Shown one piece after another: positions 26,738-61,537 of a stretch of 64,000 bases of DNA; the first letter of the stretch is position 1; every line of letters starts with the position of its first letter. Location of the stretch: contig JAWHQI010000049.1 of assembly GCA_033032865.1 (NCBI GenBank), positions 868,001 through 932,000 of the forward strand, given 5' to 3'. A model generated the notes under the pieces. The model was not told the DNA's origin, ran no database searches, and saw only the letters and a list, made by a program, of their open reading frames with translations. The stretch comes from Dactylorhiza incarnata. Taxonomy: Eukaryota; Streptophyta; Magnoliopsida; Asparagales; Orchidaceae. The position numbers and the translations under genes are program-made.

Positions 26738-26825
26738 TGTCACAACCCACATTTTCCCAAGAATATAATACATATTATCAGAGCAAAGGGAAAATATGCG
26801 TCGTGATGCCACTCCTAGAGGAGAT
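26738..26825 (-). repeat. 3' LTR of D, part 1
   Basis: It starts TGTCACAACCC and matches 43595-43682. Element C follows with GAGAT duplicated. Confidence 0.85.
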
Positions 26826-26967
26826 TGTTGGAGCATGCGTTTCGCACTCCTCCGGTTTGATAATAACAAAGTCCCATTTGTATTTGATTCTATTTTCATT
26901 AATGGTGTGCAGATAACAGGTATGAGATGTTCACATTGCTGCTGTAGCTAAAATTGAATGTGGGAAA

Positions 26968-27316
26968 ATTTCACTGTCGGAAAATTCCGACAGCCACTGT
27001 CGCCCAGGCGATAGCAGAGAAGTTACAACTACTTCCCTCCATGGCAGACCCACGATCGACAGTTTTGCGCTGTCGGAAATCCGACATCGATGTCGCCCAG
27101 GCGACAGCTCGACGGTTACAGCAACTGCCCACGACTCCACCCACGACGGCACTCCAGCGGCAGTTTAGCGCTGTCGGAAAATTCCGACAGTCACTGTCGC
27201 CCAGGCGACAGCTCGACGGTTACACCAACTGCCCACGACTCCACCCACGACGCCACTGCAGTGGCAGTTTAGCACTGTCGGAAAATTCCGACAGCCACTG
27301 TCGCCCAGGCGATAGT
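26968..27316 (+). promoter_or_regulatory. Paired palindrome array of C 5' LTR (U3)
   Basis: Four alternating pairs: CTGTCGGAAAATTCCGACAG, then CACTGTCGCCCAGGCGACAG with small variants. The last pair ends seven bases before the TATA box. The matching array of the 3' LTR is 36805-37153. Confidence 0.85.
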
Positions 27317-27322
27317 GAATTT

Positions 27323-27330
27323 CTATAAAT
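27323..27330 (+). promoter_or_regulatory. TATA box of C 5' LTR
   Basis: CTATAAAT directly after the last palindrome of the U3 array, the likely core promoter for the genomic RNA. Confidence 0.7.
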
Positions 27331-28118
27331 TGGTTCCTTTGGTTCGTGCATTCTAAGCTTTTGAGAATTCCAGTCCCTTCCTGAGTGCATACGAACCAGA
27401 GAGCTCCAGAACCTCCTCAACTCCCATTTGTGCAAAGAAGGATTGAAGATTGAAGACGAGATCGGGCGCGCTTCTACATCATCAATCATCTCGAGGCTTC
27501 AACAATCCGTTCAGAGATCTGATTTTCTAGGGAGTTGTTCTTTTCATATTGTAATTTCATTCACATACTTTTTCATTTTGTATTGGTAGAGAAATCGTCG
27601 TCTTGCGTGCGGCGTCTAAGTCCTTGCGCGGCTTAGGGGAAAATCGCTTCCTTGTGCGGAGCGTCCAAGTCCTTGCGAGGCTTGGTGGGAAATCGTGGCC
27701 TTGTGTGCTACGTCTAGATCTTGGGAAGATCTAGAGGATAGACTTGGGCTTGGTCTTGGGAGAGACAAGTGATAGCCTTCCGATCCTTGGGAGAAGGATT
27801 GGTAAACCAAAATTATTGTATTTTTATTATCATAATTGTGCCTTGATCTTAAGCATTGTTAAGATCATTTTTATTGTATGCAAATTTCATGATTAATATA
27901 ATTATGCTCTTTTCACTAATTGCAATTTTGTTTGCTTAAATCTTTATCTTAGAAATTTGTGTTTGGTTAAATACAAAAATTACATTGGTTTAAAATTATT
28001 TATAAGTACCCTTTTTAGTAAAGTAAAATTTGTCTAAAAATTGTTAAGTAAAAATTATATTTTTAAACACACCCTTATTCACCCCCCCCCCTCTAAGGGC
28101 GTCACACGATCCAACAAG

Positions 28119-28130
28119 TGGTATCAGAGC
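28119..28130 (+). other. Primer-binding site of C (initiator Met tRNA)
   Basis: TGGTATCAGAGC, two bases after the LTR end. Confidence 0.95.
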
Positions 28131-28165
28131 CAGGTTACTCCTAAACGGTTTTACCACCTGGAGTA

Positions 28166-30097
28166 ATGGCGCACAACGATCACGCGTTCGTTGAGGGGCA
28201 AGGAATTAGTAGCCCACCACTTTTCACGGGCACAGACTATAATTATTGGAAAACACGTATGCGTTGTTTTCTAATTGCGCTAGATATAGAAGTCTGGAAT
28301 ATGGTAGAATCTAGTTACACTTCTCCAACAATTGTTGTAGGAGATGTAACTATGGATAAGCCCAAAGATAAGTGGGATGATAATGATAAATTAAGATGTA
28401 AGAACAATGCAAAAGCCATGAATGCTTTATTTTGCGCACTAGATCGCACTGAATTTAATAGAGTTTGTGCTTGTAATTCTGCATTTGAAATTTGGAATTT
28501 ATTAGAAATCACTCATGAAGGTACTTCGCAGGTAAAGGATTCAAAGCTTTTTCAACTGGAATCTGAATTTGAAAGGTTCAAAATGGAGGTAGATGAAGAG
28601 ATTGATACAATGTACACACGGTTTACAAAAATCGTGAACGACTCAAAGGTGCTAGGAAAGGTGTTCTCAAATGGAGATTTGGTAAGGAAAATCTTAAGAT
28701 CACTTCCCCCGAAGTTCAATCCTAAAGTGACTGCAATTTCCGAGTCACATGATCTTAAGACCTTACAATTGGAGAGCCTCATTGGAAACTTGAAAACTCA
28801 TGAAGTTGAATTAAAAATTCAACAACAAGAGTATATGGAGCCAAGGAAGAAGGGATTGGCTCTAAGATCAAAGAAGGAAGAAACTAGTGATTCTGAGGAG
28901 GATGAAGATGATGAGGAAAGTTTATTTGTTAAAAAATTTAGAAAATTTATGAAAAATCCGGAGAGAACAAATTCGTTTAAGAAGTATTTTAAGAAGGAGA
29001 CCTTTAGGAAGAAAAAAGGAAAGGAGGGCGATGAGGAGGAAGAGAGACCGCCACCAGAGTGCTATCACTGCAAGAAGTTAGGACACATTCGAAGCAAGTG
29101 TCCAAAGTACTTGAAAGAACTTAAAGAAAAGAAGCACAAAGGGTCGAAGAAGGTGTTGAAGGCGGAAACCTGGGATGATACTACTTCAGAGGATGCAAGC
29201 AGTTCCGACTCAAGTAAAGAGGAGGAGGCCAACATATGCTTAATGGGAAAGAGCGTCATATCTGATGACGAATGCAGTGTCCAAAGCGACACTGAGGTAA
29301 CTCCTCCAACTTATGATGAATTGTTTTCTGAATTTTTAAAAACTTGCAAATTTTTTGAAAAAAGTTTAAAAGATAATGATCTTCTAAAATCTGAAAATGG
29401 AATTTTACTTAAAGAAAACAAAAAATTGTTAAATGAAATTAAGACTATTGGAAAAAGGGATATTTCTAGCCAAGAGTGTGATCACTCTTTGGGAAGAATT
29501 AAAGAACTTGAAGAATCTCTTTCCAAATCTCATTCTACAATAAAAATTCTTACTAAAAAGAATGAGATTTTAGAGAGAGATCTAAAATCTTCAATTTCCA
29601 AAGTCCATGAGGGAAAGAAATCTTTTGATCGGAAATGCGTAAATCTAGTATCCGAGAATACAAAAATGAGACACCAGATTCATGACTTAACACTAGCCAT
29701 GAAAAAATTTGGAATGGGCCGAAGATCACTAGATATGATCTTAGGATACCAACGCCATGGATCTGGAAGGTTTGGGCTCGGATACACATCTGGAAGCTGT
29801 CGCCCGGCGACAACCACTGTCGCCGGCGACAGTGAAAAGTCCAGAAAATTCACTTTTAAAAATTCTAAAATTAATGAAATATCAAATACTGCATCCTCAT
29901 CCAATAAAAGTCCAAAAAAATTATACTCTTCTAAATACATTACATGTGCCAAATGCAATAGATTTGGTCACACTACGGACTCTTGCTGGAAAGAAGGAAA
30001 AAGTAAAATCAAACAAATCTGGCTGCCTAAGGCTTCTACTTATACTATGGGTGGAACCACTTGGGTAACCAGATCTTTACTCACCTCTTCTTTCTAG
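28166..30097 (+). CDS. gag: gag of element C (capsid with two zinc knuckles)
   Basis: An intact frame of 643 residues starting MAHNDHAFVEGQ, 36 bases after the primer site. The DUF4219/UBN2-type copia capsid domain covers residues about 10-230, acidic and lysine-rich linkers follow, and the first knuckle CYHCKKLGHIRSKC is at residues 299-312. A coiled coil spans about residues 380-515, and the second knuckle CAKCNRFGHTTDSC is at residues 594-607. It forms the particle and binds the RNA. Between coiled coil and second knuckle, two LTR-type palindromes (29797-29812 and 29815-29834) are translated as part of the protein. It ends in TAG at 30095-30097, and pol continues in the same frame. B stops at the same place. 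Confidence 0.9.
   Translation: MAHNDHAFVEGQGISSPPLFTGTDYNYWKTRMRCFLIALDIEVWNMVESSYTSPTIVVGDVTMDKPKDKWDDNDKLRCKNNAKAMNALFCALDRTEFNRVCACNSAFEIWNLLEITHEGTSQVKDSKLFQLESEFERFKMEVDEEIDTMYTRFTKIVNDSKVLGKVFSNGDLVRKILRSLPPKFNPKVTAISESHDLKTLQLESLIGNLKTHEVELKIQQQEYMEPRKKGLALRSKKEETSDSEEDEDDEESLFVKKFRKFMKNPERTNSFKKYFKKETFRKKKGKEGDEEEERPPPECYHCKKLGHIRSKCPKYLKELKEKKHKGSKKVLKAETWDDTTSEDASSSDSSKEEEANICLMGKSVISDDECSVQSDTEVTPPTYDELFSEFLKTCKFFEKSLKDNDLLKSENGILLKENKKLLNEIKTIGKRDISSQECDHSLGRIKELEESLSKSHSTIKILTKKNEILERDLKSSISKVHEGKKSFDRKCVNLVSENTKMRHQIHDLTLAMKKFGMGRRSLDMILGYQRHGSGRFGLGYTSGSCRPATTTVAGDSEKSRKFTFKNSKINEISNTASSSNKSPKKLYSSKYITCAKCNRFGHTTDSCWKEGKSKIKQIWLPKASTYTMGGTTWVTRSLLTSSF
29797..29834 (+). repeat. 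LTR-type palindromes inside gag of C
   Basis: CTGTCGCCCGGCGACA, then the perfect 20-base palindrome CACTGTCGCCGGCGACAGTG. They are of the same word family as the U3 array but slightly shorter in the centre. Confidence 0.9.
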
Positions 30098-33000
30098 GTG
30101 TGTTGGCAGGCTAAGGACAAAGAAGACGTGTGGAACTTGGACTCGGGTTGTTCAAAGCACATGACGGGCAATAAAGAGAAGTTCCTTAGCCTGGAGATGA
30201 AGAAAGGAGGAGTTGTTACATTCGGTGACAATGGAAAAGGAAAAATCATCGACATCGGTGTTGTGGGTAACGAAATTTTTTCAATTTCAAATATTTTATT
30301 TGTAGAAGGATTAAAGCATAATTTGATTTCTATTAGTCAATTATGTGATAAGGGTTTAAATGTTTTATTTGAATCTTCTACAAATTTGTGCAAAATTATT
30401 AATTCCAAAACAAATGAAATTGTTTTTACCGCACCTAGATGTCATAATGTATATATGATTAAATTTCTTGATTTTTCAAATTCTACTTTAAAATGTTTTT
30501 TATCAAAAAATGATGAATTAGATTTATGGCATAGGCGACTTGGACATGCTAGTGCCAAGTTAATTTCAAAACTTTCAAAAGATAAATTAATTAAAGGGTT
30601 ACCTTTGCTAAATGGAAATTTATCTTCTTCACTATGTGTGCCTTGCCAAAAAGGAAAATTTTCAAAATCATCTTTCAAAAGTAAAAACATTATTTCTACC
30701 ACTAGGCCACTTCAATTAATACATATGGACTTATTTGGGCCAATTGGAATTTCTAGATTAGGAGGTAGAAAATACACATTTGTTTTGATTGATGATTATT
30801 CTCGTTTTTGTTGGACTTTATTTCTAACCTCCAAATCCGATGAATTTTCAGAATTCTCAAAATTATGTTTGCGTATCCAAAATGAATTTGAGTTGAAAAT
30901 TAAACGCATACGATCGGATCATGGAGGAGAATTTGAAAATGAAAAGTTTATTTCTTTTTGTACGGAGTTAGGAATTAAACATGAATTTTCCGCTCCACGC
31001 ACACCATAGCAAAATGGTGTAGTGGAGAGGAAAAATAGAACTCTTCAAGAGTTAGCCCGTACGATGTTATCTGAATTTAAATTACCAAAATCTTTTTGGG
31101 CTGAAGCGGTTAGCACGGCATGTTATGTAATTAATAGAGTAATGCTTCGCCCTATTTTAAAATTAACTCCTTATGAATTAATATTTAGTAAAAAACAAAA
31201 TGTTTCTTATTTCAAAGTTTTTGGTTGTAAATGTTTTATTTTAAATTCTAAAGATTCCTTAGGAAAATTTGATGAAAAATGTGATAAAGGTATTTTTATT
31301 GGCTATTCTTCAACTAGTAAAGCTTATAGGATTTTTAATAAAAAAACAAAAATAGTTGAAGAATCGATTCATGTTAGGTTTGATGAGTTTGCTTCATGTG
31401 TAGAAAAGAAAATTACAGGAAAAGAAGATGAACCCCTTCCATCGGTGGAGAATGATGATGAAGAACTTGGAGAAAATGAAAAAGAAAAAGAAGAAGAAAG
31501 AGAAGAAGAAAGATAAGAAGAAAGAGAAGAAGAAAGAGAAGAAGAAAGAGAAGAATATGTGTCTCCAAGTGAATTGAGATTCTCAAAGGATCATCCAAAG
31601 GAGCTTATCATTGGAGATCCGCAAAAAGGGGTTAGTACTCGTTCATCTCTATATGTTTTATTTTCAAACCTTTGTTTTGTTTCTGAAATAGAACCAAAAG
31701 ATGTTTCCACCGCTTTAAATGATGAATTTTGGTTTTTAGCTATGAATGAAGAACTTAATCAATTTGAACGTAATAAGGTTTGGAATCTTGTAGAACGACC
31801 AAAAAATCATCCTGTAGTTGGTGTTAAGTGGATTTTTAAAAATAAAATGGATAATGAATCTAGAATTGTTAGAAATAAAGCCAGATTAGTTGCAAAAGGT
31901 TATGCACAAATTGAAGGGATAGATTTTGATGAAACTTTTGCACCCGTAGCAAGATTAGAAGCGATTAGAATATTTCTTGCATTTGCTTGTTTTAAAAGAT
32001 TTAAATTATATCAAATGGATGTCAAAACCGCATTTTTAAACGGGTATATAAAAGAAGAAGTTTATGTAGAACAACCACCTGGCTTTATAAATGAGAAATA
32101 TCCAAATTATGTTTATAAATTAGATAAAGCGCTTTATGGATTAAAACAAGCGCCTCGTGCTTGGTATGATCGATTAACTCAATATTTGTTAAAGCACGAT
32201 TATAAAATAGGAAGTGCTGATTCTACACTCTTCATTAAGCAAATTGATCATGATTTAGTCATTTTACAAATTTATGTTGATGATATTATTTTTGGAGCCA
32301 CTAATGAAGAGTTGTGTAATGAAGTAGTTCAAATTATGAAAAATTAATTTGAAATGAGTATGGTTGGAGAACTTTCATATTTTCTAGGTTTTCAAATTAC
32401 ACAAAAACATGATGGAATATTTATATGTCAAACCAAGTATATTCATGATATGTTAAAAAGATTTGGATTTGAAAATCTTAAGCATGCAAACACTCCTATG
32501 AGTACTTCTCTAAAATTAGGAAAAGATGAAAGTGGTGTTTCAATTGAACAAACCCTTTATAGAAGTATGATAGGGTCTTTATTGTATTTAACCGCATCTA
32601 GACCTGATATTATGTTTGCCGTTTGTTTATGTGCTAGATTTCAAGCTAATCCTAAAGAGTCACATTTAAAAGCGGTGAAACGTATCTTTAGATATCTCAT
32701 TGGAACATCAAAATTAGGTTTATGGTATCCTCATAATGATTCTTTTATTTTGCATGGTTTTTCGGATTCTGATTATGCGGGATGTTCATTAGATAGGAAA
32801 AGCACTAGTGGCACTTGTCACTTTATCGACCCTTCACTTATTTCATGGTCGAGTAGGAAACAGAATTCTGTTGCCCTCTCTACTACCGAGGCCGAATATA
32901 TTGCACTAGGTAGTTGTTGTGCCCAAGCACTTTGGATGTCCCAAACGTTAGAAGATTTTGGCATACAACAAAGTAGTGTAGAATTAAAGTGTGATAATAA

Positions 33001-33220
33001 AAGTGCTATAGACTTAACAAACAATCCCGTATTACATTCTAGATCTAAGCATATAGACGTCCGACATCATTTTATAAGGGATCACATTAAGAAGGGTAAT
33101 ATAAAAATCAACTTTATAGGCACGGAATATCAACTAGCGGATATATTCACTAAGCCGTTACCAGATTCCCGTTTTTCTATGCTTAGGCTAGAATTGGGCA
33201 TTCTAGACATTTCACAATGA
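30098..33220 (+). pseudogene. pol: pol of element C (protease, integrase, RT, RNase H) with three stops
   Basis: A copia polyprotein in frame with gag. The protease has the WNLDSGCSKHMTG active-site region (about 30125-30165). The GAG-pre-integrase zinc region is LWHRRLGH...CVPCQKGK, and the integrase core has HMDLFGP and SDHGGEFEN. The RT has YVDDIIFG (YVDD at 32273-32284), and RNase H has KSTSGTCHF, STTEAEY and DNKSAI. It ends LELGILDISQ at 33220. The in-frame stops are TAG 31007-31009 (in the TPQQNG motif), TAA 31514-31516 (in a GAAGAAAGA microsatellite coding an acidic linker) and TAA 32345-32347 (after RT). No frameshift is seen. The protein would otherwise be about 1040 residues, normal for copia pol. 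Confidence 0.92.
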
Positions 33221-33442
33221 ATATATCACAATTTAAAGCCTATAAAATAAAAAAATTATTATCACAAAACATAAACAATGTAAATACAAAAAGCCAAAAT
33301 TCTAAAAATCAAAACATAAAATTTCAAATGACTTAACAAAAATTCAACATCATTAATATAACATCAATATTGTTCACATAAAAACAGTTGAACAAACTTA
33401 AGGATCAAGTTCTTTAAACAAAAACAGAAATCTAAAGAAGTT

Positions 33443-33485
33443 CACTGTCGCCCAGGCGACAGTGGATGTCGGAATTTTCTGACAG
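33443..33485 (+). repeat. Palindrome pair after pol of C
   Basis: CACTGTCGCCCAGGCGACAG(TG) then TGTCGGAATTTTCTGACAG with one arm mismatch. It lies 26 bases beyond the end of the antisense gene. Confidence 0.85.
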
Positions 33486-33511
33486 CTCCCAGCAGCAGCA
33501 GCAACACAAAC

Positions 33512-34627
33512 CTACTCTGAATCTTCATAACCAGCCCCGCTGCTTTCTGGATAATCTTCTGGAGGTCCTCGTCTCACGGCTTTGCCACGGCGAGTTCGCC
33601 TCACCGATTGGCGTGGCGGTTCTTCGTCCGGAACTTGCCATTCGGCCTCTTCCTCCGGAGTTGGCTTTAACTTCAGACCCTTGACGAGAAACTTCATAAA
33701 TTTCTGCATTCGACTACGGTCCTTCTTCACTTCCCTCTTGTGATCCTCCAATGAATCACGCAAATCATCAATGGACTCTCATAGTGATCCTGCCCTAGAA
33801 ATGGTCGGCTCTCTAATCTCAATCCCTGGATGAGCTTTTCTCTGCGGCTTCTTCACCTTCATTGAACCCGTATAATAAATTTCTGGGTAACAATCATCCA
33901 AATAAGCACCTTGCACTATCCATCCATATTTCTTGTAGAGTACACGCTGTATTACCGCCCCCATTGGCAGCGTATGAACCTTCACCCATCTTGGATGCTT
34001 TAATCTATACGCATATCTAATCTGGGCGAGTATGAAGTCCGCCACATCAAAAAGCTCATCCTCCATAATATAGTATGTAAAGAGGGTCAACTGAGCCGTA
34101 ATGCTTCTTGTGTCTCCACTCTTCAACATCACTGAATTCCTTAATATATCTTGGACTAAGAACGCATCCGGAGTAAGTGAGGTAACTTCAGTGGTAAGAG
34201 TCTTCTTTTGATTCCCATGTAAACTCATGTTTACAAGGGTCCAATCTCTATCCTTTCGATAATTCTCCACTATATCAGGCATATTCTAACTCATCACTAG
34301 TCCAAATTCCTCTCGAAGATCAACATGTGTTATTTCCACATGTTGACCTTGGATCTTTGATCTCACACCGCCATCCAATTCAGTGAAATTTGGGTCTTCC
34401 AAATGGTTATAAAATTCACGAATGAAAAAGGAAGAAAACCCCTCTGGTGTGATTATTGAAATTATACCTGCGTTCGCAAGCCGATCATAGATATGATCGT
34501 GCTTTGGCGACTCAAATTCCACATACTTCGCTATTCCAACAATAGCCTTCTCCACCCCCGGAAAAACTTGATATGAAGTATATGCATCTTCCGAAGTACT
34601 CTTTCGAGCTTTGGAACTGGAAGCCAT
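33512..34627 (-). pseudogene. Antisense accessory gene of element C, two nonsense codons
   Basis: A single minus-strand frame of 372 codons from ATG 34627 to 33512, opposite to gag and pol, broken only by TAG at 34286-34288 and TGA at 33779-33781. Residues about 30-290 look like the plant retrotransposon accessory domain (Pfam PF20167 type, from memory): the box FIREFYNHL...GGVRSKIQGQHVEITHVDL, then an all-helical segment with SITAQL and ADFILAQIRYA, then LPMGAVIQRVLYKKYGW. A charged helix with KREVKKDRSRMQKFMKFL and a basic RRTRRGKAVRRG tail follow, the latter like a nuclear localisation signal. The accessory proteins of A and B resemble it but lie in sense. It has its own TATA box and a probable 5'-UTR intron upstream. 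Biochemical function is unknown. Confidence 0.8.
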
Positions 34628-34628
34628 T

Positions 34629-35172
34629 CTGCAATAACATACAAAAAAATTTGATTAAACAAGGTATCACATTGTGCACTGGAACACTGTCGCCCAGGCG
34701 ACAGTGGCTGTCGGAAATTTCCGACAGCCCTCCAAGTGATTTTCTCTCAAAATTTTTACATATACTTCCAGATCTACTCAAAATAAATGTTATTTCAACA
34801 TCAAGTTTTTTTAAAAAAAACTATATATTTTTTTTCAAATCAACATATTCTACAAATCCTTTACTATTCATCATCTTCCACCTTCTTCTCTACACTAGAT
34901 CTACAAAAATCCTTTAGAAAATGAACAAATGGAAACCTTCATCACCAAATCAAAAAGAAATTTAACAAAGATAAAAATTTTAGCAAAGATCCACCAAGAT
35001 CCACTCGTTTTAAAACTAGATCTACATTTTTTCAAATCAAAAAAAAATTTTCAAAACCTACACCATTCATCAACAATCAACATGAAAACTACATTTTCCT
35101 TCTTCTCTACTATCAAAATCACAAATCCCTAAAAATTTTTGAGTTAAAAACACCAAAATCAAAAACCCATAC
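34629..35172 (-). other. Probable 5'-UTR intron of the antisense gene of C
   Basis: On the minus strand the donor CTAAG|GTATGG lies at 35173/35172. The acceptor, a T-rich tract with TTATTGCAG, ends at 34629, one base before the ATG at 34627. The length is 544 bp and the base composition AT-rich. A palindrome pair lies inside at 34685-34727. Confidence 0.55.
34685..34727 (-). repeat. Palindrome pair inside the antisense-gene intron
   Basis: CACTGTCGCCCAGGCGACAG(TG) followed by the perfect palindrome CTGTCGGAAATTTCCGACAG. Confidence 0.88.
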
Positions 35173-35268
35173 CTTAGATCTAGGGATGTCGCCGACTTCC
35201 GACAGCCTTCCTCTCATTTTTAACTCCAGGAAATGATGCACAATAGGGTTTGACTCGGGCCCCAGCCC

Positions 35269-35324
35269 TATTTATATTTTTCACTGTCGCCCAGGCGACA
35301 GTGAGTGTCGGAAATTTCCGACAG
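35269..35324 (-). promoter_or_regulatory. Promoter of the antisense gene: palindrome pair plus TATA box
   Basis: In minus-strand order there is CTGTCGGAAATTTCCGACA (35306-35324), then CACTGTCGCCTGGGCGACAG(TG) (35282-35303), then TATAAATA (35269-35276). The LTR promoter has the same order with almost the same spacing (27277-27330). Exon 1 of the leader would run from about 35245 to 35173. Confidence 0.65.
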
Positions 35325-35329
35325 CTCCC

Positions 35330-36650
35330 ATTTTAACAAAACTCCAATTTTAGGTCCCTTTGATGATCTACAATAGTTATATGTCATTATTAATGCTTCA
35401 CCTCATGACTTGATGACAAACCATGTGCTATTTATTTAAAAAATGACTTACATGTTTATATGATTTCATTTCCAAGCTATCATCGTATTGACACTTCTAC
35501 TTAGTTGTTTAGACCATTGGAAATTGTTTTCGCATGCCTCTAAGTATGAGAAATTGTTTATCTATCATAATGAACTATCACGTTCACTTCTTTTGATCAA
35601 TACGTATGTCTTTTTATTTAATATATACATAGATCATATTTGCTTTCACATAATAAAATAGCACTTCTTAAATACAACTTTCAACATTGATTTGTTAGCA
35701 CAACAAAAAATACACCATCTTTTGCGATTCAAGTGAATTCGGAGATCCTTGGTCAATTAAAAGAAAATATATCAATATATCACAATTAAGATATCACAAC
35801 GTCTGTGATCAAAAAAAATAAAAAATAAAGACAAGGATACTCCACCAAGCACTACTTACCCTCCTGATAAGTCTTAATGAGCATTGTGAGGTTAAGCACC
35901 TTGGAAAGAATTGTAAAGTGTCTTGTGCAAAAGAAACATGGTTTTCTATTCATTTTGTGCTATATCTTCAAAGTCAAAGTTGCCTTTATATGCTTTTATT
36001 ATGTTCTACATTTTAATGATCATGTAAATTAAATAACTTCATATGTTTGATCTAAGTATCACATGTACACATCATTATGTTATATAAACATTCATCTCAT
36101 GAGAATTGGACCGAAAATATTCCATATATCTATACACTATTGTGTCTTTCTATGATACTTTCAAATGATCTTACTTATGTTTCAAGTTATTTTCTTTCAT
36201 TACTTCCTATGGCTATACCGTCACTTCAAGGGCTTATTCATACTATGGCATATTCCTATTATTTCATGGACTTCATTCATACCAACAATTTGCTTCCGCG
36301 TACTCTTCATTTCTATTTTCTATTACCTTTCCCTTAAAAGCTACTCTTTTATCTAATATTCATTTTTGCTAATACCAAAACGGGGAGAATTTAAAGTATA
36401 AAAAGAAAAGTCACAAATCTATCACACCTAAATATTCCACCTACACAATACATCATATATTTAGGGGGAGCATATATTTAGGGGGAGCATATATGTAGGG
36501 GGAGCTTTTCATTTAGGGGGAGTTTTCATCTAAAGGTAGATCATTTATTTTCAAGAAATATATATTATGTTAATTTTGTGCACACACCAAAGGTTAAAAT
36601 CAACAATCTAAATAGACATGATTTCTTTTTATACGGATTTGTTATTATCA
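35330..36650 (+). other. 3' region of C without a gene, with extra polypurine tracts
   Basis: AT-rich, no convincing coding frame. Four near-copies of TTTAGGGGGAGC lie between about 36460 and 36525, well before the real tract. The stretch 35857-35930 recurs in inverted form in H (3780-3890), so it is conserved between families. Confidence 0.65.
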
Positions 36651-36662
36651 AAAGGGGGAGAT
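36651..36662 (+). other. Polypurine tract of C
   Basis: AAAGGGGGAGAT directly before the 3' LTR. Confidence 0.92.
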
Positions 36663-37956
36663 TGTTGGAGCATGCGTTTCGCACTCCTCCGGTTTGATAA
36701 TAACAAAGTCCTATTTGTATTTGATTCTATTTTCATTAATGGTGTGCAGATAACAGGTATGAGATGTTCACATTGCTGCTGGAGCTAAAATTGAATGTGG
36801 GAAAATTTCACTGTCGGAAAATTCCGACAGCCACTGTCGCCCAGGCGACAGCAGAGAAGTTACAACTACTTCCCTCCACGGCAGACCCACGATCGACAGT
36901 TTTGCGCTGTCGGAAATCCGACATCGATGTCGCCCAGGCGACAGCTCGACGGTTACAGCAACTGCCCACGACTCCACCCACGACGGCACTCCAGCGGCAG
37001 TTTAGCGTTGTCGGAAAATTCTGACAGTCACTGTCGCCCAGGCGACAGCTCGACGGTTACACCAACTGCCCACGACTCCACCCACGACGCCACTCCAGCG
37101 GCAGTTTAGCTCTGTCGGAAAATTCCGACAGCCACTGTCGCCCAGGCGACAGTGAATTTCTATAAATTGGTTCCTTTGGTTCGTGCATTCTAAGCTTTTG
37201 AGAATTCCAGTCCCTTCCTGAGTGCATACAAACCAGAGAGCTCCAGAACCTCCTCAACTCCCATTTGTGCAAAGAAGGATTGAAGATTGAAGACAAGATC
37301 GGGCGCGCTTCTACATCATTAATCATCTCGAGGCTTCAACAATCCGTTCAGAGATCTGATTTTCTAGGGAGTTGTTCTTTTCATATTGTATTTTCATTCA
37401 CATACTTTTTCATTTTGTATTGGTAGAGAAATCGTCGTCTTGCGTGCGGGCGTCTAAGTCCTTGCGCGGCTTAGGGGAAAATCGCTTCCTTGTGCGAAGC
37501 GTCCAAGTCCTTGCGAGGCTTGGTGGGAAATCGTGGCCTTGTGTGCTACGTCTAGATCTTGGGAAGATCTAGAGGATAGGCTTGGGCTTGGTCTTGGGAG
37601 AGACAAGTGATAGCCTTCCGATCCTTGGGAGAAGGATTGGTAAACCAAAATTATTGTATTTTTATTATCATAATTGTGCCTTGATCTTAAGCATTGTTAA
37701 GATCATTTTTATTGTATGCAAATTTCATGATTAATATAATTATGCTCTTTTCACTAATTGCAATTTTGTTTGCTTAAATCTTTATCTTAGAAATTTGTGT
37801 TTGGTTAAATACAAAAATTACATTGGTTTAAAATTATTTATAAGTAACCTTTTTAGTAAAGTAAAATTTGTCTAAAAATTGTTAAGTAAAAATTATATTT
37901 TTAAACACACCCTTATTCACCCCCCCCCCCCTCTAAGGACGTCACACGATCCAACA
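36663..37956 (+). repeat. 3' LTR of C
   Basis: 1294 bp, nearly identical to 26826-28116. Palindrome array 36805-37153, TATA box 37160-37167, C-run of 12 near 37920-37931. Confidence 0.93.
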
Positions 37957-37961
37957 GAGAT

Positions 37962-40900
37962 GACTACAGACACTCAGGCAACACTCCTTATGATAGATTT
38001 ATAAAAGACATATATGTGTTTGGATTAAAAGAGAATTTCCCATAATAGCTTAGGACCACGTGCCTCGGTCCGGTGGATCATCTAGTCCACAAGTAGAAAA
38101 CTATACATATGCAGCGGAAAATAGGTTTGTTTTAGCCTACATGAGCATGACGATAAACATCCAAGACATGTTATGCACATATCTATATTTAGTATAGTAA
38201 GAAAGGATTTTCTACAATTTTCAAAGTATGTTGTATTTGTTTAAAAGTCATGATATGCAAGAATGACATTTTTATACTAATAAAGTAACTAATGCATCCT
38301 AGCATAAAGCTTCCCAGAGAGCAAGTAGGTAAACAACCCAAAAGTAACAGCAATACTACTAACAAGTAATCTAAAGATAAAAGCCATACGGGCGCCAACA
38401 ACTTACACGAACCCGCGGGAAAGAAGGAAAACAACAAAAAGAAACTGCCTCTTACCTAGAAGAGGGGAAGGGCCTCGACAGTAGACCTGAACGACACTGC
38501 TCTAACACCTGCGGCAGCTAAATACCTGAACCTGAGACATTCATAAGAAAAGAATCCCTCAGCCCAAAAGGGTGCAAGAAAACCAAGATTAGCAGCATCA
38601 GAAGCAAAAGAGTGCAGGAAGGAAAAACTAAGCAGATAAACATCTATAATCTTACAACAACCCGAGCCAGCTCAAACGAGTGCACTCGGTAGGAAGAAAA
38701 GCATGCACCAGAAGGTAATAGTCAACACAATCAAAGCCCACCACGTGTCCGCCATTGCGGCTCAGAGGTGATGGTCATACATATAATATCATGATACACA
38801 TATATAAGCATATATGTTTATAAGAACTTGAGACTGATCAGCTCGAGGGAAAAGCATCCCCCAAAAGAAGGCACTACGATGGTGGTATCTCCACTAACGC
38901 CCGCAACCCAAAAACCAAACAGGAGTGCTGCGGCGGTGACTCCAATCCACTCAAACCAACAGCCCAAAAGAGGCACTGTGGCGGTGACCTTTAGCTCACA
39001 CTCCCAACAGACTCACACATAACACCAGAAGCAGGGTGCATAATCATATACATAAGTATATGGATATATATATAAGTATATAACTATACCACGGTGCAGT
39101 TTACCAGGGAATACTCAGAACATCTAAACAACGAAGATCATAGAGATCGGGAACCACTCACCAAAACTATCCCGGAGAATTCAACAACATAGCATACTTA
39201 GCTCATAAATCCCACATAGCAAACAGAGGAGTGTCAGGTGGGGGAACAGGATTTCAGAAAGCCGACACCATGCCAGGTCTGGTGCCGGAACAAGACGAAG
39301 AAAAAATATGACGCGAAGGTCAAACACCTGAACAAAGCTCAACGGTTCATTTGAAAACACTTAGCGAGTCCAAACATGGCTCCTAGCGAACCTCTTGCAA
39401 CGGTACGATGAATAAGGCAAGACAAGACACCGCAAACGAACACTAACCAAATACTGGGCAACTCGAGAAGAGAGCACAGCTTAGTTTGACGGTCAAGGAA
39501 GGTCTCATGATCAACACAGGAGGATGAACTTTAACATTCGCTATGCGAAACGCTATGAAGCAACCTTCAATAACTTTTGTATATATACAGATATATATAT
39601 ATATATATATATATATGTGAGTGCTATATAATGGTATTCGATATTTTTAGCTACTATGAGTACAAAGCTGCCGGTCACTGGAATAAGCAAAAGACCCAAA
39701 ACTGAATTCCGACCACCTACCCTTCAAATTAAACAATTGCTAGCCTCGCTAGGTCACCGAGAACTAGCAAGAGAAATTCCCAGGAAATTTAGCATCTAAT
39801 TTTCCCAAATCGTCAGGAAATTAAAATACGCAAATTTTCAGGGAAGTTTAGCCCGCCACAATAACAAACATAGCCAACAGAAAGGAAGAAAAATACAGGA
39901 TTTGGAAATTTACCGAGCATGACCACTTACGCTTAACTAATTAAATAAGCCCAAGCTTTAGCCGATACATCTAGCCCAAGGAAAAACCCAGCATAAAACA
40001 AATAGCCGACAAGCTCAACCTTCCCCATGAGAACGAAATCTCTAGCATATAGCCTAGGAAATTTAACTTTGCATAAACCTAAGTAAATACCTAGCCCTCA
40101 AATTAAACACAAAAAATTTACGAACCAGGTAATTGACTTAAGTTTAAACCAAGAAAATTTCCTAGCGTATAGGCGCAGAGTTTCGTATATCAAGAGTTTA
40201 AACTAGGAGGAAAATAAGGGAAAATAAAATGAACCAGTAGCTACCATGCTAACATCAGGGAGGAGACAGCCACAATGATATTATAAGGAACCTTGCCCAC
40301 AACCAAGAAGATCACCACAACATAATCCTATTAGGTAGGACCATGAATAAAGCAGCCCCAAAATGACGGGTTTTATAAAGCAGCCCCCAAACAGAGTTCT
40401 ATAAGGCAATCCCCATGATAAAATTTATTAAAGTAGCCCCCCGAATAAAATGCTATAAGGAAGGCCTTGAACAAGAATAAATATGCATAGGAAGCAGCCC
40501 CTAACAAATCCAAACTAGAATTGTATATATATAGCAACCCCCAATTGCAAAATTAAAGGCGGGCCCCAATAGAAGGAGGACCCCAACTTGATTACATAGA
40601 TAGCAGCCCAAACAAAGTTGAAAGGATTCAAGCCCAGCATAACTAACAGGAACCATCAAGGCCACATCCCACTATTAAGTTATAAGATCAACAACACTTA
40701 GTGGACTTCATAAGAATGACCACTTAGCCTATTATAGACTGCAGAAATTCAGCAATGACACCCCACAGATTAGGATAATAGCAGCCGACCAACAAGGAGG
40801 AGTTATAGCAACAACCAAAGCAATGATAAATTAAATGGACAACAGCACAACAGCCCTAAGGGCTGCAGAAAAACAGCCCAATCTCCCCACAAAATCAACA

Positions 40901-41384
40901 TAAGTACATCAAAACTTATGAAATCTGGAAGGAAATCAGCATCCACAGTCCAATCTCTCATTTTTTTTCTCAAAACGTGCTAAAGAAAATAAAATCTCTT
41001 CTAGTGATGCAAGCCTTGGAGCACAAACCCAAACCACAAATCATAAACTTTCAGGAAGAATAAGCAACAGCCACTCTAAACCAAAAGGAAGGGAAAGAAG
41101 GAGAAGGGGGGAGAGGAGGAAGAGTTTTCTTGCCTCGGATCAAATGGCGACTCGCCGGTTCGCGACCACGCAAGGAGAGAGCCGCCTGGATCCCTAGCCC
41201 CGGCGACGAGGACAATCTCCGGCAGCCCCCAAAATCTTCCCCGACGGCCAAAGCCCGACGAACCCTAACTCGCCGCCAACACTAAATCGAAAACCTGAAA
41301 ACATCGGGGAAGGGGGAAGAGCAGGATCGACATCGGGAAAGGAGAGAGCAAGGTTTATAATGACTGCCATCATAGAGTTATAAC

Positions 41385-41419
<35 letters not shown>

Positions 41420-42012
41420 TTTTATATTTAAGTTTCATATATAATTTATATTTATACATAATATATGATTGTATATACATGCATCCACCTGCATAGAGAC
41501 ATAGAGCCTAACGTACCCCAAGTTTTTATACGTATATATACATATATATATTGTAATTATGTTTGAATAAATCTTTACATGCCACTATACGCACAAACAT
41601 AAACCCTTATACAACCCCTTGCACAAGTACGAATACATATATACACTTATATATTTTTCCTACTTATAAACTTCTATATCTATACATTTATATCTATAAC
41701 TATATAAGCCTATTTACTTATAAACTTACCTATATAAAAACATAACCGTATGAGATTGCCCATACACACATAAAACTTCATACATACTCTCTATATCTGT
41801 AAACACCTACCCGCATGAACCTACAAACATGCATATATATATATATACACACATAACAGCATAAATGACTCCATCGAGGATTAACTCGCCGGACGACGAC
41901 GATCACGCAACGGTAACACCCTGAATAAAAATCTCGCTTTAGAATAATTATTATTAATTCCATATGCCTTAAATAAATAATTATAAGTAAAAAAAAAACC
42001 CGGGGCGTTACA
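37962..42012 (-). repeat. 3' LTR of D, part 2
   Basis: It continues D's LTR after C (compare 43683-47731). No gene is seen. Features are a (TA)n tract near 39586-39617, an (AAT)n tract near 41385-41418, a GC-rich leader-like block at 41090-41290, and a minus-strand TATA-like TTATAA at 41355-41360 followed by a CT-rich start region. In the minus direction the block reads like a 5' UTR. Confidence 0.85.
41355..41360 (-). promoter_or_regulatory. TATA box of D 3' LTR
   Basis: Minus-strand ATTATAAACC followed by CTTGCTCTCTCC, a usual plant transcription-start context. The same box in the 5' LTR is at 47089-47095. Confidence 0.5.
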
Positions 42013-43594: not shown

Positions 43595-45295
43595 TGTCAC
43601 AACCCGCATTTTCCCAAGAATATAATACATATTATCAGAGCAAGGGGAAAATACGCATCGTGATGCCACGCCTGCAGGAGACGACTACAGACGCTCAGGC
43701 AACACTCCTTACGATAAATTTATAAAAGACATATATGTGTTTGGATTAAAAGAGAATTTTCCATTTTAGCTTAGGACCGCGTCCCTCGGTCCGGTGGATC
43801 ATCTAGTCCACAAGTAGAAAACTATACATACGCAACGAAAAATAGGTTTGTTTTAGCCTACATGAGCATGACGATAAACATCCAAGACATTTTATGCACA
43901 TATCTATATTTAGTATAGTAAGAAAGGATTTTCTACGATTTTCAAAGTATGTGGTATTTGTTTAAAAGTCATGATATGCAAGAATGACATTTTTATACTA
44001 ATAAAGTAACTAATGCATCCTAGCATAAAGCTTCCCAGAGAGCAAGTAGGTAAACAACCCAAAAGTAACAGCAATACTACTAACAAGTAATCTAAAGATA
44101 AAAGCCATACGGGCGCCAACAACTGACACGAACCGGCGGGAAAGTAGGAAAAGAACAAAAAGAAACTGCCTCTTACTTATAAGAGGGGAAGGGCCTCTAC
44201 AGGAGACCTGAACGACGCTGCTCTAACACCTGCGGCAGCTAAAGACCTGAACATGAGACATTCATAAGAATAGAATGCCTCAGCCCAAAAGGGTGCAAGA
44301 AAACCAAGATTAGCAGCATCAGAAGCAAAGGAGTGCAGGAAGGAAAAACTAAGTAGATAAACATCTATAATCTTACAACAACCCGAGCCAGCTCAAACGA
44401 GTGCACTCGGTAAGAAGAAAAGCCTGCACCAGAAGGTAATAGTCAACATAATAAAAGCCCACCACGTGTCCGCCATAGCGGCTCAGAGGTGATGGTCATA
44501 CATATAATATCATGATACACATATATAACCATATATGTTTATAAGAACTTGAGACTGATTAGCTCGAGGGAAAAGCTTCCCCCAAGAGAAGGCACTGCGA
44601 CGGTTGTATCTCCACTATCGCCCGCAGCCCAAAAACTAAACAGGAGTGCTGCGGAGCTGACTCCAATCCACTCAAACCAAGAGCCCAAAAGGGGCACTGT
44701 GGCGGTGACCTTTAGCTCACACGCCCAACAGACTCACACATAACACCAGAAACAGGGTGCATAATCATATACATAAGTATATGGATATATATAAGTATAT
44801 AACTATACCATGGTGCAGTTTACTAAAGAATACTCAGAACATCTAAACAACGAAGATCATAGAGATCGGGAACCACTCACCAAAACTTCCCGAAGAGTTA
44901 AACAACATAGCATACATAGCTCATAAATCCCACATAGCAAACAGAGGAGTGTCTGGTGGGTGAACAGGATTTCAGAAAGCCGACACCATGCCAGGTCTGG
45001 TGCAGGAACAAGACGAAGAAAAAATATGACGCGAAGGACAAACACCTGAACAAAGCTCAACAGTTCATTTGAAAGTACTTAGCGAGTCCAAACTTGGCTC
45101 CTAGCGAACCTCTTGCAACGGTACGATAAATAAGGCATGACAAGCCACCGCAAATTAACACTAACCAACTACAGGGCAACTCGAGAAGAGAGCACAGCTT
45201 AGTTTGACGGTCAAGGAAGGTCTCATGATCAACACAGGAGGATGAACTTTAACATTCGCTATGCGAAACGCTATGAAGCAACCTTCAATAACTTT

Positions 45296-45343
<48 letters not shown>

Positions 45344-47119
45344 AGTGATATATAATGGTATTCGATATTTTTAGCTACTATGAGTACAAAGCTGTCGGTC
45401 ACTGGAACAAGCAAAAGACCCAAAACCGAATTCCGACCACCTACCCTTCAAATTAAACAATTGCTAGCCTCGCTAGGTCACCGAGAACTAGCAAGAGAAA
45501 TTCCCAGGAAATTTAGCATCTGATTTTCCCAAATCGTCAGGAAATTAAAATACGCAAATTTCCAGGGAATTTTAGCCCACCGCAATAACAAACTTAGCCA
45601 ACAGAAAGGAAGAAAAATAAAGGATTTGGAAATTTACCGAGCATGACCACTTCCGCTTAACTAATGAAATAAGCCCAAGCTTTAGCCGATACATCTAGCC
45701 CAAGGAAAAACCCAGCATAAAACAAATAGCTGACAAGCTCAACCTTCCCCAAGAGAACAAAATTTCTAGCATATAGCCTAGGAAATTTAACTTTGCATAA
45801 ACCTAAGTAAATACCTAGCCCTCAAATTAAACACAGAAAATTTATGAACCGTGTAATTGACTTAAGTTTAAACCAAGAAAATTTCCTACCGTATAGGCGC
45901 AGAGTTTCGTATATCAAGAGTTTAAACTAGGAGGAAAATAAGGGAAAATAAAATGAACCAGTAGATACCATGCTAACATCAGGGAGGAGACAGCCACAAT
46001 GATATTATAAGGAACCTTGCCCATAACCAAGAAGATCACCACAACATAATCCTATTAGGTAGGACAATGAATAAAGCAACCCCAAAATGGTGGGTTTTAT
46101 AAAGCAGCCCCAAACAGAGTTCTATAAGGCAATCCCCATGATAAAATTTATTAAAGCAGCCTCCCGAATAAAATGCAATAAGGCAGCCCCCGAACAAGAA
46201 GAAATATGCATAGGAAGCAACCCCTAACAAATCCAAACTAGAATTATATATATATAGCAACCCTCAATTGCAAAATAACAGGCAGCCCCCCCCCCCCCCC
46301 CCAATAGAAGCAGGACCCCAACTGGATTACATAGATAGCAGCCCAAACAAAGTTGAAAGGATTCAAGCCCAGCATAACTAACAGGAACCATCAAGGCCAC
46401 ATCCCACTATTAAGGTATAAGATCAACAGCACTTAGTGGACTGCATAAGAATGACCACTTAGCCTATTATAGACTACAGAAATTCAGCAATGACACCCCA
46501 CAGATTAGGACAATAGCAGTCGGCCAACAAGGAGGAGTTATAGCAACAACCAAAGCAATGATAAAGTAAAGGGACAGCAGCACAACGGCCCGAAGGGCTG
46601 CTGAAAAACAACCCAATCTCCCCACAAAATGTACATAAGTACATCAAAACTTATGAAATCTGGAAGGAAATCAGCATCCACGGCCCAATCTCTCTCTTTT
46701 TTTCTCAAAACGAGCTAAAGAAAATAAAATCTCTACTAGTGATGCAAGCCATGGAGGACAAACCCAAACCACAAATCATAAACTTTTAGGAAGAATAAGC
46801 AACAGCCACTGTAAACCAAAAGGAAGGGAAAGAAGGAGAAGGGGGGAGAGGAGGAAGAGTTTTCTTGCCTCGGATCAAACGGCGACTCGCCGGTTCGCGA
46901 CCACGCAAGGAGAGAGCCGCCCGGATCCCTAGCTCCGGCGATGAGGATGAGCTCCGGCATCCCCCAAAATCTTCCCCGGTGGCCAAAGCCCGACGAACCC
47001 TAACTCCCCACCAACACCAAATGGAAAACCTGAAAACATCGGGGAAGGGAGAAGAGCAGGATCGACATCGGGGAAGGAGAGAGCAAGGTTTATAATGGCT
47101 GCCAGCAAAGAGTTATAAC

Positions 47120-47189
<70 letters not shown>

Positions 47190-47731
47190 CTTTTATATTT
47201 AAGTTTCATATATAATTTATATTTATACATAATATATGATTGTATATACATGCATCCACCCGCATAGAGACTTAGAGCCTAACGTACCCCAAGTTTTTAT
47301 ACGTATATATACATATATATATATATTGTATTTATGTTTGAATAAATCTTTACATGCCACTATACGCACAAACATAAACCCTTATACAACCACTTGCACA
47401 AGTACGAATACATATATACACTAATATATTTTTCCTACTTATAAACTTTTATATCTATGCATTTATATCTATAACTATATAAGCCTATTTACTTATAAAC
47501 ATACCTATATAAAAACATAACCGTACGAGATTGCCCATACACACATAACAAACATGCATATATATATATACACACATAACATCATAAATGACTCCATCGA
47601 GGATTAACTCGCCGGACGATGACGATCACGCAACGGTAACGCCCTGAATAAAAATCTCGCTTTAGAATAATTATTATTAATTCCATATGCCTTAAATAAA
47701 TAATTATAAGGAAAAAAACTGGGGCGTTACA
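43595..47731 (-). repeat. 5' LTR of D
   Basis: 4137 bp, uninterrupted, from TGTCACAACCC to ...GGGGCGTTACA on the plus strand. It has a longer (TA)n (45300-45341) and (AAT)n (about 47121-47187) than the 3' LTR, a 16-base C-run near 46286, and a TATA box at 47089-47095. Unusually long for an LTR. Confidence 0.9.
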
Positions 47732-51205: not shown

Positions 51206-52062
51206 TTGGAAAGGGTAAATGTTATGTGTATGTGAAGGCGTCATTTGTCTTTGTGGTCAGCTGGCTAGCACGTGCATGCTTGGATTCATATGGGAGAGTG
51301 TCCCAGTAGGACAAGTCCCATTCTGGGCTAACTAAAAAGAACAAGTATGTTGGTGCGCCCATTGGCAAGATGAGCCATGTAAGGGGTGAGGTCCTAGTGG
51401 AGTCCTTGGCTTTTGGTTTAGTGATTGTGGCGAGAACAAGTATGCTGATGCGCCCATTGGCAAGATGAGCCATGTAGGGGTGAGGTCTCAGTGGAGTTCT
51501 TGGCCTTGGGCTTGTACGCCTGTGGGGGAATGATAAGTACCCTTGGTTTGTTACTAAATGTTGATGTGTGTTGTTATGTTAGAAGCATACACGCCATAGG
51601 GTGCCTTGGATGAAACACAGGTTTGCATACATGCTGCATTGTTAGATCCCCTTACTTTTATTGCTCAACATTGAAACGTGGATGATAATTGTGACACTCA
51701 TGCCTGTCGTGTTTATGTTAATATTGTTTATTACATTTGCATACGAAGTGCTGACTTGTAGGGTGATGTAGTTCCTCGGGGTCCGCTAGGATGGCCGGGA
51801 GTAGGGGTGTTGTTACACCGTTGTTGGTCAGCCAAAGCTGGATCTCATTATACCGCTCTTTGTGATTTGGATGCAGGGCAAGGATCGCAGGCTAGACCTA
51901 GCTCGCCGGCCAGAAAGGCCTAAGCTTCATGAAATGCACTTTTCATGTTCTCTTGTTTGATTTGATGTCTTTACCTGTTCCGGCTTTCATGCCGAGGTAG
52001 CTTAGGATTATGATGATCTGTTGGACATTTATATGCCCTGTTTTAACTTGAATATGAGTTTT
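51206..52062 (+). repeat. 5' LTR of G, part 2
   Basis: It continues G's LTR after E and ends at 52062 with GTTTT, the target duplication of B. No gene. Confidence 0.7.
51340..51510 (+). repeat. Direct duplication in G LTR
   Basis: Two diverged copies of a segment of about 80-90 bp (51340-51418 and 51430-51510), each with GCGCCCATTGGCAAGATGAG and a GGGGTGAGGTC box. Confidence 0.8.
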
Positions 52063-52802
52063 TGAAAGAACTAGTTGTCTACCTAAATCACCTAAGGGGG
52101 GGCGGGGGGGGGGGGGGTGAATAGGTGATCTCTACTGCGCTTGCGGAATAAAAATTTAGCACACACAACAATAAAAATCACAGCACAGAGACACAAGATT
52201 TATAGAGGTTCCCCAAGGTGGGTACTCCTCTCTCCCTCTCCGCCTATCTAGCACTTCAGGCTAGCGTCGGCAACTTCACCAAAACTCGGATTTATCAACA
52301 AATCCTACACTCGGAGACTACGACTCCTACAAGCTCGGAGAACAACCTCTCCTACAAAAACACTCGGAGATAAACTCCTACAACTCGGAGCGAACAACTC
52401 CTACAAAATAACTCGGAGTAAAACTCCTACAGAAATCAAATAGAGATTGAAATAAAATAATTCTTCTAAATCACAATAGAGATTAACTTTAGATCTTGAA
52501 AGACTGAATCTTCTTCTTCTTCCTTGAGAATGAAAGCTTGGATCTGTAAAGATTTGGAAGAGAAAAGACTCGGCAAACCTGATCTGATTAGGCCCTTTGA
52601 TTTATTTGAAAAGTTCTTCAATAGAGAGAGTAGAAACAAGATCAAAGGCCTTCTTATCTGAGAAATCTTTAGTAGCACTGGAGAACAAATCTTGAGCGGC
52701 GCAGAAGTTAGATCTCAGAAACTTGTTCAGCAAAGAGATGAAGAAGACGGCTAGAAAATTATCTCACTTTTTAACATTGGTGTTTGCCCTAAAAATAAAG
52801 AA

Positions 52803-52811
52803 GTATTTAAA
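52803..52811 (-). promoter_or_regulatory. TATA box of B 3' LTR
   Basis: Minus-strand TTTAAATAC, downstream (element sense) of the CGACGAAT array at 52930-53250. The other LTR has it at 62266-62274. Confidence 0.5.
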
Positions 52812-52929
52812 GGGAAACCTCCAACGGCTCGGGCGACAGATAAGGAGAGGTCGCCACGTGTACTAGACATGTCGACCAACCCTAATTTTCAAAAACGAAA
52901 CATAAATTTGAAATCCGTCTGTCCGTCAT

Positions 52930-53250
52930 TCGTCGAGACTTCACGTGAACATTCGACGAATTGACTTAGCCATTGGAAATGCTGATCAAGCCGTGGAAAA
53001 CACCTTCTGTTTTCATTCGTCGGGAGCTCTCGAGAACTCTCGACGAATTGACTTAGCTGCACAGATTCCTTCACAAAGCTGCCTTTTGGCTTCTGTCAGC
53101 ATTCGTCGACATTCGTCGGGAGTTCACGAGAACATCCGACGAATGGACTTGGCCGCAAAACATTCTTCTTCAAACTGGAAAATTGGCTTTTGTCAGGATT
53201 CGTCGGGAGTCACGGGACTTCACGTGACATCTCGACGAATTGACTTAGCA
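52930..53250 (-). repeat. ATTCGTCG palindromic word array in B 3' LTR
   Basis: Four modules of the form ATTCGTCGGGAG..CGAGAACNNNCGACGAAT(TGACTTAGC), with arms about 8 bp and loops of 20-30. The matching array is at 62390-62725. Confidence 0.85.
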
Positions 53251-53554
53251 AAAATTCCTTTTTTTTCTGAAAACCTGCTCCACTCCTCAACCTTGAAGGC
53301 CATTAGTTGTGAGAATATGAAGTGCACCCCAAAAGAGAGATTACACATGAACCAACACTTTGTTCTACACAATGAGGGATTACATTGTCTAGAACTATGT
53401 TTGGTGATCCATTGCAACCTGACTTTGGTGTGCACTTAGCATTATGACCTATCACAATACAACTAAAGAGAAATCATCAAATACATACTCAATTCAATTT
53501 AGTTCATTAGGGGACACCTTCAAATCCAGGTGATTGTGGATACAATACCCAACA

Positions 53555-53569
53555 ATCTCCCCCTATTTG
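53555..53569 (-). other. Polypurine tract of B
   Basis: Minus-strand AAATAGGGGGAGAT directly before the 3' LTR. Confidence 0.88.
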
Positions 53570-53736
53570 AAGATGTCATAACCCTATGCACTAAGTTGAA
53601 TTGCACAGAAAATATAATGAATAAAATAGCACAAACACAGGCAGTTATAATTTAAGGAGAGAATCAATGTTTTATCCAAACACAAAAATAGATATATATA
53701 AACAAAGAAATCAGTATGATTCCAGAGTAGTTCAGC

Positions 53737-61476: not shown

Positions 61477-61523
61477 CGTATAGGAATCTTTAATCTAGGT
61501 GTTAACCTCTTAAAGATAACCTA

Positions 61524-61535: not shown

Positions 61536-61537
61536 AT

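What the first reader, a model, noticed from the sequence alone, without database searches (positions are those of the whole stretch)
33443..35324. Antisense accessory gene in C with its own palindrome-marked promoter and 5'-UTR intron
Between pol and the 3' LTR of a copia element lies a 372-codon minus-strand frame (34627-33512) broken by just two nonsense codons. Upstream on the same strand stand a TATA box (35269-35276), a palindrome pair (35282-35324), a donor site (35173/35172), and an acceptor TTATTGCAG one base before the ATG. The promoter repeats the LTR order, palindrome then TATA, with nearly the same spacing. Palindrome pairs also bracket the gene at its far end (33443-33485) and occur in the intron. 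Antisense extra ORFs are known in some plant gypsy elements; I do not recall one in copia sharing its promoter words with the LTR.
Basis: partly seen in the sequence, partly recalled or inferred. Interest (0 to 1): 0.88.

Follow-up and report, generated by a model that had tools for sequence, protein, structure and literature searches.

The report
Antisense accessory gene in plant Sirevirus
A plant jumping element of the Sirevirus kind carries an extra protein gene on its opposite strand, kept intact by natural selection and apparently switched on through the same palindromic DNA boxes that mark the element's main promoter.

Summary
The listed sequence features are all present. The element (26826-37956) looks like a SIRE/Sirevirus copia retrotransposon. 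Its minus-strand frame (34627-33512) is a real gene: with X at its two nonsense codons it matches Pfam PF20167 (E 5e-7, below Pfam's cut-off). Across 70 copies from the host genome, changes private to one copy look neutral (omega-like 1.02), while changes shared by three or more are constrained (0.14; 20 replacement or stop against 46 silent). The flanking palindromes look constrained too. The TATA box lies 7 nt from the palindrome, against 8 nt in the LTRs. The intron has the best-scoring donor and acceptor of its region, but no RNA was seen and the splice words are not unusually conserved. Known before: palindromic boxes in Sirevirus LTRs and before their sense env-like gene; antisense accessory genes in gypsy elements. 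Apparently new (ten searches, open-licence library): an antisense PF20167-type gene in a copia element, with LTR-type boxes in inverted order at its promoter. PF20167 proteins lie in sense in gypsy elements of this genome (2 of 2 read) and in a second copia of this window.

The parts
26826..37956 (+). Whole element: SIRE-type copia retrotransposon, GAGAT target duplications at 26821-26825 and 37957-37961
26826..28116 (+). 5' LTR (1291 bp) with four palindrome modules; the last is followed after 8 nt by a TATA at 27324
28145..33220 (+). gag-pol frame (stop-to-stop), one frame with four internal stops
33445..33484 (-). Palindrome pair just past the stop codon of the antisense gene
33512..34627 (-). 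Antisense accessory gene, 371 codons plus stop, two nonsense codons in this copy; remote PF20167 relative
34629..35172 (-). Predicted 5'-UTR intron (inferred), 40% T on the minus strand
34687..34726 (-). Palindrome pair inside the predicted intron
35173..35245 (-). Predicted exon 1 (the start at 35245 is assumed)
35269..35276 (-). TATA box TATAAATA of the antisense promoter
   Evidence: TATA-type word in 69 of 70 copies
35284..35323 (-). Promoter palindrome pair, in the LTR order when read on the minus strand
36464..36660 (+). Five GGGGGAG polypurine tracts before the 3' LTR
36663..37956 (+). 3' LTR (1294 bp)

Best explanation
The element is a Sirevirus (SIRE-lineage copia) with a protein-coding accessory gene on the strand opposite gag-pol. 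Shown: the frame is under purifying selection in the lineage that keeps transposing, single copies decay neutrally after insertion, the palindromes beside the gene vary little among shared changes, and the promoter module has the LTR's order and spacing. Inferred: a host factor that acts on the LTR palindromes also acts on those upstream of the antisense TATA box, so both strands are switched on together; transcription starts near 35245; the 5'-UTR intron is removed, which takes away 14 of the 15 upstream ATGs of this copy; the protein, a remote relative of the sense post-pol protein of Athila-type gypsy elements, works in trans as an accessory factor, most likely nuclear. The two nonsense codons in this copy are post-insertion decay.
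For: 0 of 2000 shuffles. PF20167 match, colinear across the first stop. Private changes 163 replacement or stop to 53 silent (omega-like 1.02), shared by three or more 20 to 46 (0.14) in 70 copies. pN/pS 0.25 in set 1 (bootstrap 0.15-0.40) and 0.23 in set 2 (0.16-0.32), against 0.246 for RNase H in 26 clean copies. 43 of 70 copies uninterrupted. Palindromes: 53 private, 8 shared changes in 108 sites, against 147 and 110 in 489 intron sites. Gap of 7 nt to TATA in 68 of 70 copies. Best donor and acceptor of the region. No strong membrane segment (maximum 19-residue hydropathy 1.16) and basic stretches.
Against: No RNA data. Splice words not conserved above background: 61 of 691 windows are as conserved as the donor, 174 as the acceptor, 376 as the TATA window. 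Only the middle one of three protein pieces matches PF20167 alone, and even read through the match stays under Pfam's cut-off. The window's copy keeps an upstream ATG in exon 1. CpG decay inflates private changes in palindromes, and the promoter pair alone has only 19 private and 4 shared. Changes carried by ten or more copies are few and less skewed (6 to 7, omega-like 0.29). One plus-strand frame also has a low ratio (0.44 and 0.36), though it holds 20 stops. In the 26 copies used for RNase H the gene's ratio is 0.32 (0.0072/0.0224). The copies are related, so test p-values are rough.
Confidence: 0.75

Rival explanations
1. The antisense RNA, not the protein, is what matters: it pairs with the gag-pol transcript and feeds silencing or self-limitation; the frame is a bystander.
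For: The gene lies convergent to gag-pol, so transcripts would overlap; PMC7264820 proposes such a role for antisense transcripts in general (part 2).
Against: Selection acts on the amino-acid sequence of the minus frame; an RNA-only role does not predict that. Both roles could coexist.
Confidence: 0.08
2. The gene is a protein gene, but it is expressed from the LTR or a nearby host promoter; the linker palindromes are only spread copies of LTR repeats without a promoter role.
For: Palindrome pairs also lie in the predicted intron and past the stop codon, and related ones in gag (29796-29834), where no promoter is expected.
Against: Order and spacing to the TATA match the LTR; the linker pairs resemble each other more (39-41 of 43) than the LTR pairs (35-39 of 43), so they are not fresh copies; shared changes per site are lowest in the palindromes.
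Confidence: 0.13
3. Chance open frame or a decaying captured fragment without function.
For: The window's copy has two nonsense codons, and 27 of 70 copies are interrupted.
Against: 0 of 2000 shuffles; constrained shared changes against neutral private ones; PF20167 match.
Confidence: 0.02

Closest known systems
Sirevirus env-like gene with upstream palindromic repeated motifs (PMC2829016; passages, section 9)
   Same: Palindromes in the LTR upstream of TATA and again upstream of an accessory gene between pol and the 3' LTR
   Different: There the gene is in sense; here it is antisense and the boxes are in inverted order. The protein here shows no strong membrane segment
Antisense accessory genes of gypsy elements: Grande gene23, RIRE2, Retand, PvRetro13 (PMC7264820 parts 1 and 2; PMC11963269 passages; PMC4093653 passages)
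   Same: Antisense gene between pol and 3' LTR; for Grande transcription from its own promoter is reported
   Different: Gypsy hosts (for PvRetro13 and Retand stated in the passages, for the others recalled); other protein families where named; no boxes shared with the LTR were mentioned in what I read
Sense PF20167 ORF of Athila elements (PMC11728184 passages)
   Same: Same Pfam family and same slot after pol; also seen in two gypsy loci of this genome
   Different: Sense orientation, gypsy host, much stronger PF20167 score (159 bits against 30)
Foamy-virus Tas with its internal promoter, and HTLV antisense gene (recalled; HTLV also mentioned in PMC7264820)
   Same: A second promoter for a regulatory gene sharing response sites with the LTR, or an antisense gene
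   Different: Animal retroviruses, no homology tested, and no regulator function shown here

Membership tests
SIRE lineage / Sirevirus (Ty1/copia) | copia domain order: integrase before reverse transcriptase | tested here: met
   rve in 30098-31009, RVT_2 in 31517-32347 and 32348-33220
SIRE lineage / Sirevirus (Ty1/copia) | multiple polypurine tracts before the 3' LTR | tested here: met
   Five GGGGGAG tracts
SIRE lineage / Sirevirus (Ty1/copia) | palindromic boxes with CGG-CCG type core upstream of the LTR TATA | tested here: met
   TGTCGGAAAATTCCGACA and the second palindrome, four modules per LTR, TATA after 8 nt; the second palindrome has a GCC-GGC core instead
SIRE lineage / Sirevirus (Ty1/copia) | placement in a tree of reverse transcriptases | not tested
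   No tree with named elements was made
Sirevirus env-like gene | sense orientation after pol | tested here: not met
   The gene is on the minus strand
Sirevirus env-like gene | transmembrane segment | tested here: inconclusive
   Maximum 19-residue hydropathy 1.16, under the recalled threshold of 1.6; no dedicated predictor was run
PF20167 (Transposase_32) | score at or above Pfam's curated cut-off (45 bits) | tested here: not met
   30.2 bits with X at the stops, E 5.2e-7; filed as a remote relative, not a member
Antisense accessory ORF (eORF-3'R / aORF-3R) | frame of at least 250 codons, antisense, between pol and 3' LTR, kept in most copies | tested here: met
   371 codons; gene present full length in 36 of 39 copies picked by another stretch; 43 of 70 uninterrupted
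Antisense accessory ORF (eORF-3'R / aORF-3R) | transcription from its own promoter (as in Grande) | not testable with these tools

The most novel reading that the evidence does not exclude
The antisense protein itself regulates the palindrome boxes: an element-encoded factor that binds the boxes in the LTR and in its own promoter, making a two-promoter feedback switch in a plant copia element, similar in layout to foamy-virus Tas and its internal promoter.
Probability: 0.12. Interest if true: 0.88.

Novelty: new variant of a known kind. Interest (0 to 1): 0.62.

Why it matters
In the papers I read, antisense genes of plant retrotransposons have no known function (PMC7264820, PMC11963269), and the role of Sirevirus palindromes was left open (PMC2829016). 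This element ties the two together in a high-copy family (2863 first-look candidates in one genome): the same kind of box stands at both promoters and looks constrained. Which factor binds the boxes and what the antisense protein does become directly testable. Neutral private against constrained shared changes is also a simple test for other accessory genes.

Tried and rejected
Homolog search of the protein in the large protein collection: 1138 candidates, none at E 0.001. Scans of viral contigs with the antisense middle piece and the RNase H piece, and of bacterial and archaeal genomes with the RNase H piece, gave no relative. The palindrome pattern hit one viral contig (L001), which I did not examine. 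Structure prediction of the 168-residue middle piece: mean pLDDT 37, not interpretable, so no fold search was made. Direct alignment of the antisense protein with the three ORF pieces of the second copia: nothing significant (best E 0.29); only the shared Pfam match links them. Splice-site conservation as proof of splicing: rejected. Repeated palindromic boxes shared between LTR and linker of the second copia: none found. Searches for a more divergent relative (window 2585-4190) and for copies of the second copia's sense ORF did not complete, nor was the protein search, which I did not repeat.

Full report
What is there. The element spans 26826-37956 with GAGAT target duplications. Its LTRs of 1291 and 1294 bp differ at 18 of 1291 aligned sites (K2P 0.014; about 0.5 to 1.0 million years with recalled plant rates). 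gag-pol is one frame, 28145-33220, with four internal stops and copia domain order. Five GGGGGAG tracts precede the 3' LTR, a poly-C stretch lies near the LTR's 3' end, and palindromic boxes precede the LTR TATA. These are hallmarks listed for Sireviruses in PMC2829016 (passages). The repeat map suggests that the element sits inside the LTR of a larger one. No phylogenetic placement was made.

The antisense frame. It reads 371 codons on the minus strand with two internal stops. Shuffles of the same DNA never had two or fewer stops (0 of 2000). Of its three uninterrupted pieces only the middle one matches PF20167 alone (E 1.7e-4; the others none). With X at the stops the match grows to E 5.2e-7 and runs colinear across the first stop. 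None of nine other ORFs scanned matched PF20167. The score, 30 bits, is under Pfam's cut-off of 45, so I call it a remote relative.

Copies. The host genome (3.27 Gb, unnamed) gave 40 scored copies, the window's included, of 2863 first-look candidates; all 40 are essentially full length at 98-100%. In this set 1 no copy has an indel in the gene, 28 of 40 have no internal stop, and stops are private except one position found in three copies. Because set 1 was picked by similarity of the gene, I drew set 2 by a non-coding stretch near the 3' LTR (top 40 of 1623 candidates, window included). Of the 39 others 36 hold the full gene; 3 show none in the 2.7 kb fetched. With the window that makes 37: 28 have a length divisible by three, 20 of these without internal stop, and 9 do not. 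Together there are 70 distinct copies, 43 with an uninterrupted frame.

Selection. Changes found in one copy behave neutrally: 163 replacement or stop against 53 silent, where their mutation spectrum predicts 75% replacement or stop; 14 stops were seen and 14.4 expected. Changes shared by three or more copies are 20 against 46 (omega-like 0.14). Those in ten or more copies are few, 6 against 7 (0.29) (all). So copies decay after insertion, as the window's copy has, while the replicating lineage keeps the protein. pN/pS is 0.25 in set 1 and 0.23 in set 2, and 0.246 for RNase H in 26 clean copies of set 1; in those 26 copies the gene itself gives 0.32. The middle part of the protein is the most constrained (0.16, against 0.44 and 0.29). 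The five other frames give 0.44 to 1.64 in set 1 and 0.36 to 1.21 in set 2. The low one is a plus-strand frame that holds 20 stops; I take its low ratio as an echo of the overlapping codons, which I did not test.

The promoter. Each LTR has four palindrome modules; the last is followed after 8 nt by TATAAATT. The antisense promoter has the same pair, read on the minus strand, followed after 7 nt by TATAAATA. Two more inverted pairs lie in the predicted intron and just past the stop codon. The three linker pairs are closer to each other (39-41 of 43) than to the three LTR pairs compared (35-39 of 43). In 70 copies the palindromes show 53 private and 8 shared changes in 108 sites, the rest of the intron 147 and 110 in 489, the stretch upstream 60 and 37 in 269, and exon 1 with the TATA gap 59 and 24 in 109. 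CpG decay raises the private count in palindromes, but shared changes per site are also lowest there (0.07, against 0.22, 0.14 and 0.22). I conclude that the palindromes are probably under selection; the promoter pair alone (19 and 4) is too small a sample. A TATA-type word is present in 69 of 70 copies, though its exact word is no better conserved than half of the leader.

The intron. Donor and acceptor are the best-scoring of the region; they are present in 69 and 70 of 70 copies. The predicted intron is T-rich and holds 12 to 16 ATGs per copy in set 1, while exon 1 has none in 36 of 40 and 27 of 37. Against this, the splice words are not unusually conserved. I regard splicing as likely and unproven.

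Relatives. PF20167 is very common in this genome: 8771 first-look candidates, 150 scored, every one over the cut-off. I could read two of those 150 loci. In both the protein lies in sense behind pol; in L088 Pfam shows gypsy domain order and PF20167 at 159 bits, and L089 was judged by its ORFs only. The name Athila rests on PMC11728184, which reports PF20167 similarity in a sense ORF of a sunflower Athila element (passages), and on recall. A second copia of this window (LTRs 52062-53554 and 61537-63028, minus strand) has a PF20167 match, also under the cut-off, in a sense ORF after pol (E 1.4e-4). So the same slot is filled by relatives of one family in either orientation. An inversion of a sense gene with its boxes would explain the layout; that is inference.

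Against the literature. PMC2829016 reports repeated palindromes in 13 Sireviruses, with additional linker copies, mostly upstream, in the nine that have the sense env-like gene (section 9). PMC6317226 reports forward extra ORFs in 74% of SIRE elements and distinguishes reverse ones as a class; the passages I saw do not say whether any copia has them, so an earlier antisense case in its tables cannot be excluded. PMC7264820 (parts 1 and 2 of 3), PMC11963269 (passages) and PMC4093653 (passages) describe antisense genes in other elements; PMC7264820 also names antisense promoters in AtRE1, a copia by my recall. My ten searches brought up no report of an antisense gene in a copia element sharing boxes with its LTR; the library lacks most subscription papers, and I read passages, not whole texts.

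Mechanism. I commit to an antisense accessory protein gene, co-activated with the LTR through shared boxes. The gene and its constraint are shown; co-activation, splicing and a nuclear role of the protein are inferred.

Noticed in passing
52062-63028, minus strand; ORF pieces 55753-55184, 55254-54514, 54408-53737: A second copia element with a sense PF20167-like ORF after pol, broken into three frames, and a TATA-like AT palindrome at 55786-55809 upstream of it.
   Followed up: partly
29796-29834: Two palindromes of the second LTR type (GTCGCC-GGCGAC) lie inside the gag frame, one a perfect 20-mer at 29815-29834.
   Followed up: no
33445-33462, 34687-34704, 35284-35301 against LTR copies: The linker modules are inverted as pairs, but the off-centre CA in the middle of the second palindrome reads the same way on the plus strand as in the LTR; a clean inversion would flip it.
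   Followed up: no
1176-4181: A minus-strand remnant related to this element's linker and LTR ends (76-89% identity in pieces), without a match to the antisense gene in the window.
   Followed up: partly
35217 and L010-L087: The window copy's exon 1 has an upstream ATG that most other copies lack, so this copy may be defective in its leader as well.
   Followed up: partly
4490-4984 and 9217-9711: Arrays of a 20-bp tandem repeat inside a pair of diverged long repeats.
   Followed up: no
26738-26824 + 37957-42012 and 43595-47731: A pair of about 4.1-kb direct repeats with only about 1.6 kb between them, interrupted by this element; possibly a non-autonomous large element.
   Followed up: no
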